A stretch of DNA of 64,000 nt from an uncultured Erythrobacter sp. (GTDB taxonomy: Bacteria > Pseudomonadota > Alphaproteobacteria > Sphingomonadales > Sphingomonadaceae). This document shows, piece after piece, positions 5,009-7,733 of the stretch. Made by a program: the position numbers and the translations under genes. Position 1 is the first letter of the stretch. Each line of letters starts with the position of its first letter. The stretch is from contig NZ_OY284435.1 in the NCBI RefSeq assembly GCF_958304185.1, forward strand, positions 186,001 through 250,000, written 5' to 3'. The notes beneath the pieces are model-generated. The model saw only the letters and a list, made by a program, of their open reading frames with translations, ran no database searches and was not told the DNA's origin.

Positions 5009-6106
5009 TCAGCTTTGGGCGATGCGCTCCACACCCCCGCCAGACACCCTCCAGATCGCAGCTTCCTTGCGGATCGCATCAAAGGGAGCGAGTTCGGTGC
5101 CGGTCATCCAGACCTGCGCCTTGCCTTCCCTCAGCCGCCGGAACAGCTCTGTCCGGCGAACCGGATCAAGATGCGCGGCGACCTCATCCAGCAGTAGCAC
5201 GCTCGGGCGGCCAGCGGCGGCAAGGATGCCGTGGGCCAGCGTAATGGCGATCAGCATGGCCTTCTGCTCGCCGGTCGAACAGGCGGCGGCAGGCTGACTG
5301 GTTGAGGCCATCTTTACCTGTAATTCATCGCGCTGCGGCCCGGTGAGCGCGCGTCCAGCCGCCCGGTCACGCGGGCGGGCACGGGCGAGTTCGGCGCCCA
5401 AGGCGGTCTCGTCCAGCGGGCCGCCGGGGAGGTAGGTGAGGGCAGGCCGGGCGAAAGGTTCAGGAGGCAGGGCGGAAAGTTCGTCGGCGAGGCGCAAGAC
5501 AAGGTCGGCCCGGGTCCGCGCGACCGCCGCGCCGTGATCCGCCGCCTGCGCCTCGATCGCGTCCATCCAGCGCGGATCGCCGCCCGTATCCAAGAGCTTG
5601 CCCCGCTCTCGTAACGCGGTCTCAAGCGCATTGACCCGCCGCGCATGATCGGGCGCGATGGCCAGCGCCATGCGGTCCATGAACCGCCGCCGCGCGCCCG
5701 CGCTGTCGGTGAAAAGGCCGTCCATTGCCGGGGTGAGCCAACTCATCGCCAGCCATTCGGCAAGGCTCGCCGCGCTGGCGGGCGCGCTGTTGACCCGCAC
5801 GAGCCGCCGCCCGGGTTGGCCCTCTTCCGTATAGGTGCCGATCCGCGCCGACACGGTACCAGCCTCGGTCAGGCTCGCTCCGATGGCAAAGGGCAGGGGA
5901 GGATCGCCCGGAACCGCCCGCCGCGCCAGATCGCCGAGGTTCGCGCGCCGCAGCCCGCGCCCCGGCCCGAGCAGCGATAGCGCCTCCAGCAGGTTGGTCT
6001 TCCCCGCGCCGTTCTCACCCACCAGTAGGTTGAAATGCGCCGTCTCGCCAAGCGTCGTCGCGGCGTGATTGCGGAAGTTTTCGAGGGTGATCCGGCTGAG
6101 GCCCAT
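5009..6106 (-). CDS. recF: DNA replication and repair protein RecF
   Basis: A 365-residue SMC-like ATPase that helps load RecA on gapped DNA through RecOR. The ATG at 6106 gives the normal RecF length; a longer upstream reading frame runs back through the regulatory region and is not used here. Walker A 'GENGAGKT' lies at residues 30-37, preceded by the family N-terminus 'LENFRNH', and the signature/Walker B region near 'STGEQKAMLIAITLAHG' and 'LLLDEVAAHLD' follows at the C-terminal end. It is not next to dnaA/dnaN here. The gene is divergent from the sigma-54/microprotein unit, so both promoters share the 6107-6346 interval. Confidence 0.95.
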   Translation of the reverse strand: MGLSRITLENFRNHAATTLGETAHFNLLVGENGAGKTNLLEALSLLGPGRGLRRANLGDLARRAVPGDPPLPFAIGASLTEAGTVSARIGTYTEEGQPGRRLVRVNSAPASAASLAEWLAMSWLTPAMDGLFTDSAGARRRFMDRMALAIAPDHARRVNALETALRERGKLLDTGGDPRWMDAIEAQAADHGAAVARTRADLVLRLADELSALPPEPFARPALTYLPGGPLDETALGAELARARPRDRAAGRALTGPQRDELQVKMASTSQPAAACSTGEQKAMLIAITLAHGILAAAGRPSVLLLDEVAAHLDPVRRTELFRRLREGKAQVWMTGTELAPFDAIRKEAAIWRVSGGGVERIAQS

Positions 6107-6268
6107 GGCGCACTCGCGGTTAGCACAGGGGCCAGATTTGGCCAGAGCAGCGCTTCCGAAATCGGCAATCCTAACCCTTGGTAGATTTTCCCAATCTTTC
6201 GTTTGGCTGAACGGACTGTTTGCGGAGTGAAAGCATAGAAACCGCAGAATTCCCCCATTTTTCGAGTT

Positions 6269-6284
6269 TGGCACGCCCCGTGCA
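6269..6284 (+). promoter_or_regulatory. Sigma-54 (RpoN) promoter, near-consensus
   Basis: The bases TGGCACGCCCCGTGCA match the sigma-54 consensus TGGCACGNNNNTTGCW at every fixed position except one (G for the first T of TTGC). The -24 GG (6270-6271) and -12 GC (6282-6283) have the required spacing. Transcription would start near 6295 and give a leader of about 50 bases before the first microprotein. Sigma-54 promoters need an AAA+ activator; since a PspC lies downstream, PspF is the obvious candidate, but its gene is not in the window. No activator-binding site was identified upstream. Confidence 0.72.
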
Positions 6285-6346
6285 GTGTTGTTTGCATCCC
6301 CGGGATGGTCCCGGAAAACACTGAAAACACCAAAAGGAGACTTCAC

Positions 6347-6460
6347 ATGTTCGCCACCGAAACCTCGAACCGCCTGTTCGCCGCCGCTTTCTCGATCGTC
6401 ATGTCGGCTGCGTTCTTCGCCTACGCCATCGTTCCGGCCAGCCCGACCCTGCTCGCCTGA
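6347..6460 (+). CDS. 37-residue single-span membrane microprotein, copy 1
   Basis: A small frame starting at ATG 6347 behind a strong ribosome-binding site (AAAAGGAG, about eight bases upstream). It encodes a short polar N-terminus with one arginine (residue 9), then a hydrophobic stretch from about residue 10 to 30 and the C-terminal motif 'FAYAIVPASP'. It would form one transmembrane helix with a very short tail. It is the first gene after the sigma-54 promoter and is followed by a second, related copy and by pspC in the same direction. No known family was recognised; the paralogous copy and good ribosome-binding sites argue that it is real. Confidence 0.72.
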   Translation: MFATETSNRLFAAAFSIVMSAAFFAYAIVPASPTLLA

Positions 6461-6501
6461 TTGTCGCCTCACCAACCTCTCGACCCAAAGGACCCAAGAC
6501 C

Positions 6502-6615
6502 ATGTTCGGCTCTGACAACCTCGCCCGCCTCGCTTCCGCTGCCTTCGCTGTCGTTCTGACCGTTGCCAGCTTCGCCTATGCCATCGTTCCTGCTAGCCCC
6601 GGCATGATCGCCTAA
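6502..6615 (+). CDS. 37-residue single-span membrane microprotein, copy 2
   Basis: The second copy has exactly the same length as the first and lies 41 bases downstream, with AAAGGA about ten bases before ATG 6502. Hand alignment gives 20 identical positions of 37, including Met-Phe at the start, Arg-Leu at 9-10, and the complete C-terminal block 'FAYAIVPASP'. The N-terminal polar residues and the lipid-facing residues vary conservatively, a pattern expected of a protein under selection after duplication. It has one predicted membrane helix and no cysteine or charged residue in the span. Function unknown; co-transcription with PspC suggests a role in inner-membrane stress. Confidence 0.72.
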   Translation: MFGSDNLARLASAAFAVVLTVASFAYAIVPASPGMIA

Positions 6616-6648
6616 GCCGGCAAGACCTTCTCACGGAGACTGACTGAC

Positions 6649-6864
6649 ATGAACAACATCACGGGCAATTCCGGCGGCAAACCGCCCCGCGCGAACTTCC
6701 GCCTCGACAAGCCCAACGCCAAGGTCTTCGGCGTCTGCGCCGGGATTGCTGACTACTTCGGGATCGACACCATGCTGGTGCGGATCGGCTTCGTCGCCGG
6801 CGCGCTGCTCGGTTTCGGCAGCTTCATCCTGATCTACCTGGCGATCGCGCTGATCGCGGATTGA
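6649..6864 (+). CDS. PspC domain-containing membrane protein
   Basis: A 71-residue protein made of a short polar N-terminus, the PspC core 'KVFGVCAGIADYFGID' (about residues 25-40) and one or two closely spaced hydrophobic segments to the C-terminus. In enterobacteria PspC senses inner-membrane stress and, with PspB, relieves PspA inhibition of the sigma-54 activator PspF. Here neither pspA nor pspB is adjacent; instead two 37-residue membrane proteins precede it. CGGAG lies about ten bases before the ATG. A hairpin terminator follows, so the unit appears to end with this gene. Confidence 0.88.
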   Translation: MNNITGNSGGKPPRANFRLDKPNAKVFGVCAGIADYFGIDTMLVRIGFVAGALLGFGSFILIYLAIALIAD

Positions 6865-6924
6865 GTGCAGCGACGAAAAGCGGTTCCCGGTTTTCGGGCC
6901 GCTGCACCTGATTGGAATAACCGG

Positions 6925-6953
6925 GAGGGGCCTTTCGAGGCCCCTCTTTATTA
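6925..6953 (+). terminator. Rho-independent terminator after pspC
   Basis: A perfect 8-bp stem GAGGGGCC/GGCCCCTC with a 6-base loop TTTCGA is followed by TTTATTA. It lies 60 bases past the pspC stop and just before the end of the convergent SDR gene, so it closes the sigma-54 unit. Confidence 0.8.
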
Positions 6954-7733
6954 CATGGCCGAGATACCGCCATCCAGCTTGAGCTCGGCACCGGTCATGA
7001 AGCGGCTCTCGTCGCTCGCAAGATAGAGCACCGCGTTGGCGATATCATTGGGCTCGCCCACGAACTTCAGCGGGATCTGCCGCGCCAGCTTCTCCAGCAG
7101 CACATCCTTGTCGAGCGATGCAGCCTTGGCCGTCCCGTCAAGGATCGGGGTGTCGACAAAGGTCGGGTGGACCGAATTGCAGCGGATGTTCATGCCCTTC
7201 TTGGCGCAGTGGAGCGCGATCGACTTCGACAGCATCCACACCGCTGCCTTGCTGGCATTGTATGCGGGCATGGTGTCGCTCGCGATCAGACCGGCGATCG
7301 AGGAGATATTGATGATCGAACCCGGCGCGTGTTCGCGCATCAGCGGCAGGGCCTTCTGGCAGCCGTGGAAGATCGAGTTCACGTTGATGTCGAAGCAGCG
7401 CTGCCAGTCCCCGAAATCGCAGGCTTCGATATTGCCCGGCACCCCGATCCCGGCATTGTTGACCAGCACGTTGAGCCCGCCGAGATGGTCGCGCGCGGCA
7501 TCGACTGCGGCTTCCCATTGAGCGGGGTCGGTTACGTCGTGCGCGATCCCGAAAGCGGTGCCTTCGCCCATCTCGGCATTGATGATCGCCGCAGTCTCTG
7601 CCGCGCCCGCACCGTTGATATCGGTCGCCAGCACCCGCGCCCCTTCCTGCGCCAAACGGATGCAATGCGCGCGGCCAAGGCCCTGCGCAGCCCCCGTGAC
7701 GAGGGCCATCTTGCCCGCAACTCTGCCTACCAT
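6951..7733 (-). CDS. SDR family NAD(P)-dependent oxidoreductase
   Basis: A 260-residue classical short-chain dehydrogenase. The nucleotide-binding motif TGAAQGLG is at residues 13-20, an acidic Asp near 38 at the end of the second strand favours NAD, NNAG is at 92-95, catalytic serine at about 144-145, and the YNASK motif places Tyr 158 and Lys 162. The C-terminal 'DGGISAM' is typical of 3-hydroxy-acyl/steroid-type SDRs (FabG-like subfamily). The substrate cannot be read from the sequence. The start lies three bases past the stop of the Nudix gene, so the two are probably co-transcribed. Confidence 0.88.
   Translation of the reverse strand: MVGRVAGKMALVTGAAQGLGRAHCIRLAQEGARVLATDINGAGAAETAAIINAEMGEGTAFGIAHDVTDPAQWEAAVDAARDHLGGLNVLVNNAGIGVPGNIEACDFGDWQRCFDINVNSIFHGCQKALPLMREHAPGSIINISSIAGLIASDTMPAYNASKAAVWMLSKSIALHCAKKGMNIRCNSVHPTFVDTPILDGTAKAASLDKDVLLEKLARQIPLKFVGEPNDIANAVLYLASDESRFMTGAELKLDGGISAM

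What the first reader, a model, noticed from the sequence alone, without database searches (positions are those of the whole stretch)
6347..6864. Two tandem 37-residue membrane microproteins in front of a stand-alone PspC
Two very short genes (6347-6460 and 6502-6615) each encode exactly 37 residues, share 20 identical positions by hand alignment and end in an invariant 'FAYAIVPASP' block, each with its own good ribosome-binding site. They are followed directly by a PspC-domain protein, with no pspA or pspB near. Known phage-shock operons use PspA, B and C; membrane microproteins as partners of PspC would be a new layout. Candidate roles: PspC anchors, PspB substitutes, or small sensors of membrane tension.
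Basis: partly seen in the sequence, partly recalled or inferred. Interest (0 to 1): 0.82.

Follow-up and report, generated by a model that had tools for sequence, protein, structure and literature searches.

The report
Membrane microproteins of sphingomonad phage-shock response
Two tiny membrane proteins sit in front of a small stress protein and appear to share the switch of the bacterium's main membrane-damage response; the same arrangement recurs in related bacteria, so it looks like a real and apparently undescribed branch of that response.

Summary
Two 37-residue frames, 20 identical positions, precede a 71-aa PspC-domain protein. They are genes: dN/dS 0.25 and 0.20, against 0.29 for pspC. 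All 122 non-redundant microprotein arrays examined have a near-consensus sigma-54 promoter just upstream; 108 run directly into pspC. A promoter model built from microprotein loci of other genomes finds two full-length sites in this genome: the window site and the pspA promoter beside pspF, in a complete pspF/pspABC locus on another contig. So this is most likely a second PspF-sigma54 operon, not a psp system lacking A and B. In 55 of 57 pspA operons seen in the family a small hydrophobic ORF comes before pspA; in two the first gene is longer. The array microproteins form one helix with a small-residue packing face and end in [ILVMF][AV] (229 of 235; 4 of 184 other short window ORFs). I read them as stress-induced inner-membrane subunits that pack with each other and PspC. 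Regulation is well supported by comparison; function is inferred. Verdict: new variant of a known kind.

The parts
6178..6194 (+). upstream activator-like element TTGGTAGATTTTCCCAA, candidate PspF site
   Evidence: Conserved in the 46-promoter alignment (consensus TTGGGAAAAATTCCCAA); the promoter model matches the own pspA promoter over positions 8-122. PspF binding not tested.
6240..6263 (+). promoter-proximal dyad-like element AACCGCAGAATTCCCCCATTTTTC
   Evidence: Conserved as AAAACGGCnGAATTCnGCCATTTTT next to the -24 box; a similar stretch precedes the own pspA promoter.
6269..6284 (+). sigma-54 -24/-12 promoter TGGCACGCCCCGTGCA
   Evidence: 11 of 12 consensus positions; only TGGCACN6TGCA match in the window, 0.24 expected, at least one in 21 of 100 shuffles; an equivalent site in all 122 arrays.
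6300..6314 (+). 5' leader hairpin CCGGGA-TGG-TCCCGG
   Evidence: Stem recurs with other sequences in relatives; mean folding z -2.17 over 74 distinct leaders, mononucleotide shuffles; the own leader alone is not significant (z -1.37). RNAalifold on a MAFFT alignment gave no pairs. Suggestive only.
6347..6460 (+). microprotein 1, 37 aa
   Evidence: dN/dS 0.25; first-copy paralogue class.
6502..6615 (+). microprotein 2, 37 aa
   Evidence: dN/dS 0.20; second-copy class; one helix, residues 3-28, mean pLDDT 84.3.
6649..6864 (+). short PspC-domain protein, 71 aa, without the C-terminal half of classical PspC
   Evidence: PF04024 60.2 bits; TIGR02978 only 55.5 bits (cut-off 104), profile positions 4-59 of 121.
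6926..6949 (+). terminator-like hairpin AGGGGCC-TTTCGA-GGCCCCT followed by CTTT
   Evidence: Read directly from the sequence; not tested.

Best explanation
The stretch is a second operon of the phage-shock (PspF-sigma54) regulon. When PspA releases PspF under inner-membrane stress, PspF at the upstream element activates sigma-54 polymerase at 6269-6284, and one transcript makes two paralogous membrane microproteins and a short PspC. Each microprotein inserts as one helix (about residues 3-28), N-terminus inside (R9), with a short uncharged tail outside. The conserved small-residue face (A/S at -13, S/A at -9, S/T at -5 before the AxAIxP core) packs the helices against each other and, I propose, against PspC, making a stress-induced membrane assembly that supports the bilayer or tunes PspC signalling. 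The near-invariant C-terminal [ILVMF][AV] looks like a tag read by a protease or PDZ-type domain, which would keep the proteins short-lived. Shown by comparison: selected protein-coding genes, conserved sigma-54 promoter, promoter shared with pspA, linkage to pspC. Inferred: PspF as the activator (about 0.85), topology (0.75), packing with PspC (0.45), turnover tag (0.35).
For: dN/dS 0.25, 0.20 and 0.29 for the two microproteins and pspC. Sigma-54 site scoring at least 9 of 12 upstream of 122 of 122 arrays, 120 scoring 10-12; with the upstream stretch reversed, 1 of 122 reaches 10 and 15 reach 9. Promoter model from 46 microprotein loci of other genomes finds the window site (E 2.2e-24) and the held-out pspA promoter (1.6e-12, positions 8-122); the next match is partial (E 0.001). 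PspF itself: TIGR02974 477.6 bits, cut-off 443.55. pspC directly downstream in 108 of 122; 73 of 243 microprotein genes overlap the next gene's start. First and second copies are separate classes (77.5% and 76.3% within, 54.5% between, 29 arrays). All 235 microproteins have a 17-residue stretch of mean hydropathy >= 1.6. Positions -13, -9 and -5 are small residues in 221 of 221 core-aligned peptides. C-terminal [ILVMF][AV] in 229 of 235 against 6 of 186 short window ORFs, two of which are the microproteins' own frames.
Against: No expression, binding, localisation or phenotype data. The genome has six strong sigma-54 activators, so PspF is inferred. The loose pattern TGGCACN6TGC is not enriched in this genome (29 sites against 48 of the reversed pattern). 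14 of 122 arrays show no pspC (one cut by a contig end), so PspC is not an obligate partner. No homology between the array microproteins and the pspA-operon small proteins (hhalign probability 0.2%). Two pspA operons (L261, L272) open with a 168-173 aa protein instead of a small one. The promoter score is the best of 150 nt upstream, which the reversed control allows for.
Confidence: 0.6

Rival explanations
1. Export-sentinel reading: the microproteins are signal-peptide-like precursors cut after A-x-A, releasing a peptide of about 10 residues such as IVPASPGMIA, which is the active product or reports on export and proton motive force.
For: 221 of 235 hold A-x-A-[IV]-x-P at the end of the hydrophobic stretch, as the -3/-1 rule for signal peptidase would ask (rule recalled). 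Many pspA-operon small proteins look, by eye, more clearly signal-peptide-like (PAYAA, PAFAA).
Against: I or V at +1 and an N-region with one basic and often one acidic residue are poor for cleavage (recalled); the Ala pair fits helix packing equally well. No predictor was run.
Confidence: 0.15
2. Regulatory role: the microproteins bind PspC or PspA and set the threshold or shut-off of PspF, as feedback inhibitors or sensors rather than effectors.
For: Co-directional linkage and overlap with pspC; usually a small protein in front of pspA as well.
Against: 14 of 122 arrays show no pspC; up to four copies fit an effector made in bulk better than a sensor.
Confidence: 0.2
3. Leader-peptide reading: the frames matter only for translation of pspC, their products not at all.
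For: ATGA overlaps of the last microprotein with pspC in many arrays; a 5' hairpin.
Against: dN/dS 0.20-0.25, side-chain conservation, two separate paralogue classes, arrays without pspC.
Confidence: 0.03
4. Toxin-like reading: type I-like hydrophobic peptides in tandem that lower membrane potential on purpose under stress, as reported for YohP (27 aa) in E. coli.
For: Size, hydrophobicity, tandem copies; YohP lowers membrane potential and induces PspA and PspC (PMC12719787, passages). A conserved sigma-54-driven RNA lies near pspF.
Against: No Rfam match at E <= 0.1 in 5900-7100. Predicted pairing of that RNA with the two microprotein leaders is weaker than the median of 21 window leaders (-20.5 and -24.0 against -25.4 kcal/mol); of the four leaders tried only the own pspA-operon leader is stronger (-31.8; best background -46.2). 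Long-term constraint together with pspC.
Confidence: 0.12

Closest known systems
pspG, the second PspF target of E. coli and Salmonella
   Same: A small protein in its own sigma-54, PspF-dependent unit away from pspABC (PMC9239133 passages; PMC3844500 passages; PMC2731931 passages, which also reports 11 further genes raised by PspF overproduction).
   Different: No Pfam match for the two window microproteins; tandem 33-53 aa paralogues; usually followed by a short PspC.
pspFABC operon of Gammaproteobacteria
   Same: pspF divergent from pspABC with a sigma-54 promoter; the genome holds this locus.
   Different: A small hydrophobic ORF precedes pspA in 55 of 57 operons seen; the own locus goes on with four more small ORFs, one weakly PspB-like.
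PspA-free pspC neighbourhoods (Ravi et al. 2024, PMC11237479, passages)
   Same: PspC genes away from pspA, thought to draw on PspA encoded elsewhere.
   Different: Those in the passages seen are fusions or neighbours of Toastrack, LiaI-LiaF-TM, HAAS or histidine kinases; microprotein partners were not in them.
YohP and similar stress-induced small membrane proteins (PMC12719787, passages)
   Same: Small membrane protein tied to the Psp response.
   Different: YohP is encoded away from psp genes and its production induces Psp; no sequence comparison was made.

Membership tests
PspF-sigma54 (psp) regulon | -24/-12 sigma-54 promoter | tested here: met
   6269-6284, 11 of 12 positions; 122 of 122 arrays at 9 or more.
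PspF-sigma54 (psp) regulon | PspF encoded in the genome | tested here: met
   TIGR02974 477.6 bits, cut-off 443.55.
PspF-sigma54 (psp) regulon | PspF binds the upstream element | tested here: inconclusive
   Element shared with the pspA promoter; binding needs an experiment; five other strong sigma-54 activators exist.
PspF-sigma54 (psp) regulon | Induction by inner-membrane stress | not testable with these tools
   No expression data held.
PspC | PspC domain | tested here: met
   PF04024 60.2 bits, cut-off 25.
PspC | Full-length classical PspC (TIGR02978) | tested here: not met
   55.5 bits, cut-off 104, profile positions 4-59 of 121 only.
PspB | PspB profile match of the microproteins | tested here: not met
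   No Pfam or NCBIfam family at E <= 1 for P0001 or P0002.
PspG / PspD | Pfam PspG or PspD match | tested here: not met
   No Pfam family at E <= 1 for P0001 or P0002; a short query and HMMER's filters limit this.
Type I toxin-antitoxin | Known antisense or antitoxin RNA | tested here: inconclusive
   No Rfam match at E <= 0.1 in 5900-7100; antisense transcription not testable.
Sec signal peptide | Cleavage after A-x-A | not tested
   Motif present in 221 of 235; no predictor or experiment.

The most novel reading that the evidence does not exclude
In the sphingomonads the PspF regulon opens with fast-evolving membrane sentinels: small proteins whose outside C-terminal [ILVMF]-[AV] tag is destroyed by an envelope protease when insertion and proton motive force are normal, and which accumulate and engage PspC or PspA when they fail. 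Membrane damage would then be read through the fate of a self-made probe, and the tandem copies and rapid divergence would follow from that.
Probability: 0.12. Interest if true: 0.92.

Novelty: new variant of a known kind. Interest (0 to 1): 0.72.

Why it matters
[quoted passage not shown] 2022 (PMC9239133, passage). Here many members of one bacterial family put small membrane proteins first in their apparent PspF operons. That gives many natural variants, a defined promoter and 33-53-residue subunits small enough for genetics and NMR, so the partner and sensing questions become directly testable.

Tried and rejected
Rejected: PspB substitutes (PspB over cut-off in 371 of 397 family genomes). 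Rejected: chance frames or leader peptides. Not found: homology of the array microproteins with the pspA-operon small proteins. Not found: plasmid or phage copies of P0001 (no match at E <= 1 in 72,556 plasmid and 50,697 phage records; P0002 not tried). Not supported: the nearby sigma-54 RNA as a regulator of the microprotein leaders. Led nowhere: RNAalifold on the leader alignment gave no structure; a simple stem scan was at p <= 0.05 in only 17 of 74 leaders; Rfam gave nothing above gathering scores; the PspC model is poor (mean pLDDT 62.2). Class-wide search: 8 of 289 genomes at E <= 0.01, of which only the own genome and one of its genus are convincing.

Rows dropped and choices made: one fetched piece (L175) gave no microprotein, and 17 of 139 loci with a duplicate array were left out, giving 122. 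The loci are mostly best matches; 40 places in 39 genomes were added by hand from the printed hits. In one search one of 76 loci had no usable upstream, and 46 of 75 promoters were kept for the model (below 80% mutual identity; L004, the own locus, and L060 left out). In one search, 27 of 29 37+37 arrays entered; 23 of 27 pspC had equal length. In one search the 221 of 235 peptides holding the core motif were aligned on it, so its own positions are fixed by construction. The 50 pspA operons come from the strongest PspB hits and were not made non-redundant; where several short frames existed one search took the most hydrophobic one, so the hydropathy and C-terminus counts there are biased; one frame (L249) has no good ribosome site. 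Literature searches behind 'apparently undescribed': seen as top listings only (open-access PMC papers); one search was seen as a listing only.

On re-checking I found that two fetched loci (L261, L272) are pspA operons with a longer first gene; the earlier '50 of 50' became 55 of 57.

Full report
WHAT IS THERE. The window holds two 37-codon frames (6347-6460, 6502-6615) and a 71-aa PspC-domain protein (6649-6864) on the + strand. The peptides share 20 of 37 positions. Neither has a Pfam or NCBIfam match at E <= 1; the third protein matches PF04024 with 60.2 bits but the full-length PspC model only in its first half.

THE REST OF THE GENOME. Two PspC genes exist. The other lies in a complete locus (L003): pspF (TIGR02974 477.6 bits) divergent from a small ORF, pspA, pspB, pspC and four further small ORFs. 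So 'no pspA or pspB near' is true locally and misleading for the genome.

THE GENES ARE REAL. The two-peptide profile hits 82 of 298 genomes of the GTDB family (E <= 0.1, weak ones included) and 46 loci of named contigs, mostly Erythrobacter and Porphyrobacter. A 51-sequence profile hits 113 of 397 (E <= 0.01), 86 of them at E <= 1e-5 (counted). In the order 58 of 246 genomes hit, and all of these belong to the own family. In the class 8 of 289 hit, and only the own genome and one of its genus convince. Nei-Gojobori dN/dS over 27 sequences each is 0.25 and 0.20, against 0.29 for pspC (23 sequences); read in the two other frames the same DNA loses the pattern. In 29 arrays of two 37-residue copies, first copies resemble first copies (77.5%) and second copies second copies (76.3%), but first and second differ (54.5% across genomes, 55.4% within): two old paralogues, each kept.

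THE PROMOTER. At 6269-6284 stands TGGCACGCCCCGTGCA. In 122 non-redundant arrays the best site within 150 nt upstream scores 12 (6), 11 (88), 10 (26) or 9 (2) of 12; reversed upstream stretches reach 10 once and 9 fifteen times. Published sigma-54 sites look alike, such as Salmonella pspA TGGCACGCAAATTGTATT (PMC3844500, passages). Two more elements are conserved: TTGGGAAAAATTCCCAA further upstream, and AAAACGGCnGAATTCnGCCATTTTT beside the promoter. A sequence-only model from 46 promoters of other genomes, with neither the window site nor any pspA promoter in it, finds in the own genome the window site (2.2e-24), then the pspA promoter (1.6e-12, model positions 8-122), then only partial matches (E 0.001 and weaker; 150 of 592 first-look candidates were scored). 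That is the main reason to call this a PspF operon. Against it: six strong sigma-54 activators exist, and the loose motif alone is not enriched in the genome (29 sites against 48 of the reversed pattern).

THE LAYOUT IS GENERAL. Arrays hold one (27), two (70), three (24) or four (1) microproteins; 108 of 122 are followed directly by pspC. Of 243 microprotein genes 73 overlap the start of the next gene. Of the 14 arrays without pspC one (L044) is cut by a contig end; several others are second loci in genomes that also have an array with pspC (for example L105 beside L103, same contig). I looked at 50 pspA operons (10 best PspB hits with their flanks, 40 more chosen by me from the top of the PspB list; not made non-redundant). 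All 50 have a sigma-54-like site scoring 10 or more within 1000 nt upstream of pspA (reversed stretches reach 9 at most), and in all 50 a short frame lies between it and pspA; the most hydrophobic such frame passes the hydropathy test in 50 of 50. The promoter model hits 72 of 95 genomes, nearly one genome per genus. I fetched 20 of those hits that are not clear array promoters. Seven are pspA operons: five with a 48-59 aa first gene, two (L261, L272) with an exported-looking first gene of 168-173 aa. Twelve open other operons with 33-48 aa hydrophobic proteins, and 10 of those 12 loci hold a PspC. One (L271) is unclear. So of 57 pspA operons seen, 55 have a small first gene and two do not; and genomes without a clear profile hit often have the same layout with diverged microproteins.

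ANATOMY. AlphaFold2 gives one helix, residues 3-28, breaking at the conserved proline (mean pLDDT 84.3). Aligned on the A-x-A-[IV]-x-P core (221 of 235 hold it), position -16 is charged in 83% (R in 162), charged residues round to 0% from -15 to +6, and -13, -9 and -5 are small in 221 of 221. That is a small-xxx-small-xxx-small face, typical of close helix packing (recalled). Only 13 of 221 carry any charge after the core starts. The C-terminus is [ILVMF][AV] in 229 of 235 microproteins and in 44 of 50 pspA-operon small frames. Among 186 ATG frames of 30-65 aa in the window 6 end so, two of them the microproteins' own frames. It is not a by-product of gene overlap: 149 of 170 non-overlapping genes end in Ala, 70 of 73 overlapping ones. 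C-terminal processing proteases prefer such ends (recalled, not taken from a paper here).

HOW IT MOST LIKELY WORKS. Stress frees PspF; the operon is switched on; microproteins insert, pack through the small-residue face with each other and probably with the short PspC, and support or sense the bilayer; the C-terminal tag makes them short-lived. Regulation is well supported by comparison. Partner and activity are inference.

WHAT IS NEW. Popp et al. [quoted passage not shown] coli (PMC9239133, passages); PMC2731931 reports 11 further genes raised by PspF overproduction (passages). Ravi et al. 2024 mention Alphaproteobacteria once, for PspFABC loci in which Toastrack proteins replace PspC (PMC11237479, passages). 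I saw no paper on these microproteins in the listings of searches of the held open-access library; closed journals were not searched.

A SIDE FINDING. A sigma-54 site about 12 kb from the pspA promoter in the own genome precedes a candidate small RNA of about 106 nt with a strong terminator. A model from five such RNAs hits 66 of 95 genomes at E <= 0.01, most of them weakly; 19 genomes reach about 1e-7 or better, the five training genomes among them. In all 10 loci fetched, five of them outside the training set, the best sigma-54-like site of the 3.1-kb piece (score 11) lies just upstream of the RNA on its strand. No Rfam family matches above its gathering score.

Noticed in passing
G000:C4:275567-275696 (L123 1544-1673; L291): Sigma-54 promoter driving a candidate small RNA (about 106 nt, long hairpin with a CCUGGUCUCC loop, strong terminator) about 12 kb from the pspA promoter, next to a gene that looks by eye like a glutaredoxin; strong in 19 of 95 family genomes, five of them the training set. 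No Rfam family above gathering score. Possibly a PspF-dependent small RNA.
   Followed up: partly
L003 6726-6923 (-), own pspA operon: First gene of the pspA operon is a 65-residue hydrophobic, signal-peptide-like protein ending in EIA (start codon chosen by me). Small first frames occur in 55 of 57 pspA operons seen; several look by eye more like cleaved signal peptides than the array microproteins do.
   Followed up: partly
L003 3743-5029 (-): Four more small ORFs of 102-118 aa follow pspC in the own psp locus, each with a hydrophobic N-terminus and a recurring LERIVTD-type stretch; one is weakly PspB-like (18.1 bits, cut-off 25.6).
   Followed up: no
window 6300-6314 and counterparts: A hairpin at the 5' end of the predicted leader recurs with different stem sequences (mean z -2.17 over 74 leaders; own leader z -1.37).
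   Followed up: partly
L105-L110: Sigma-54-driven microprotein arrays without pspC; no gene shared by all six downstream. A topoisomerase IV-like gene lies nearby in L106, L108 and L110, a caspase-like one in L109 and L110 (by eye).
   Followed up: no
L261, L272: pspA operons whose sigma-54 promoter is followed by a 168-173 aa exported-looking protein that begins like the small proteins and goes on into a longer domain.
   Followed up: partly
window 5009-6475 (-), ORF as listed: A gene that looks by eye like recF is divergent from the array; the same neighbour is seen at L065, L087, L102 and L103.
   Followed up: no
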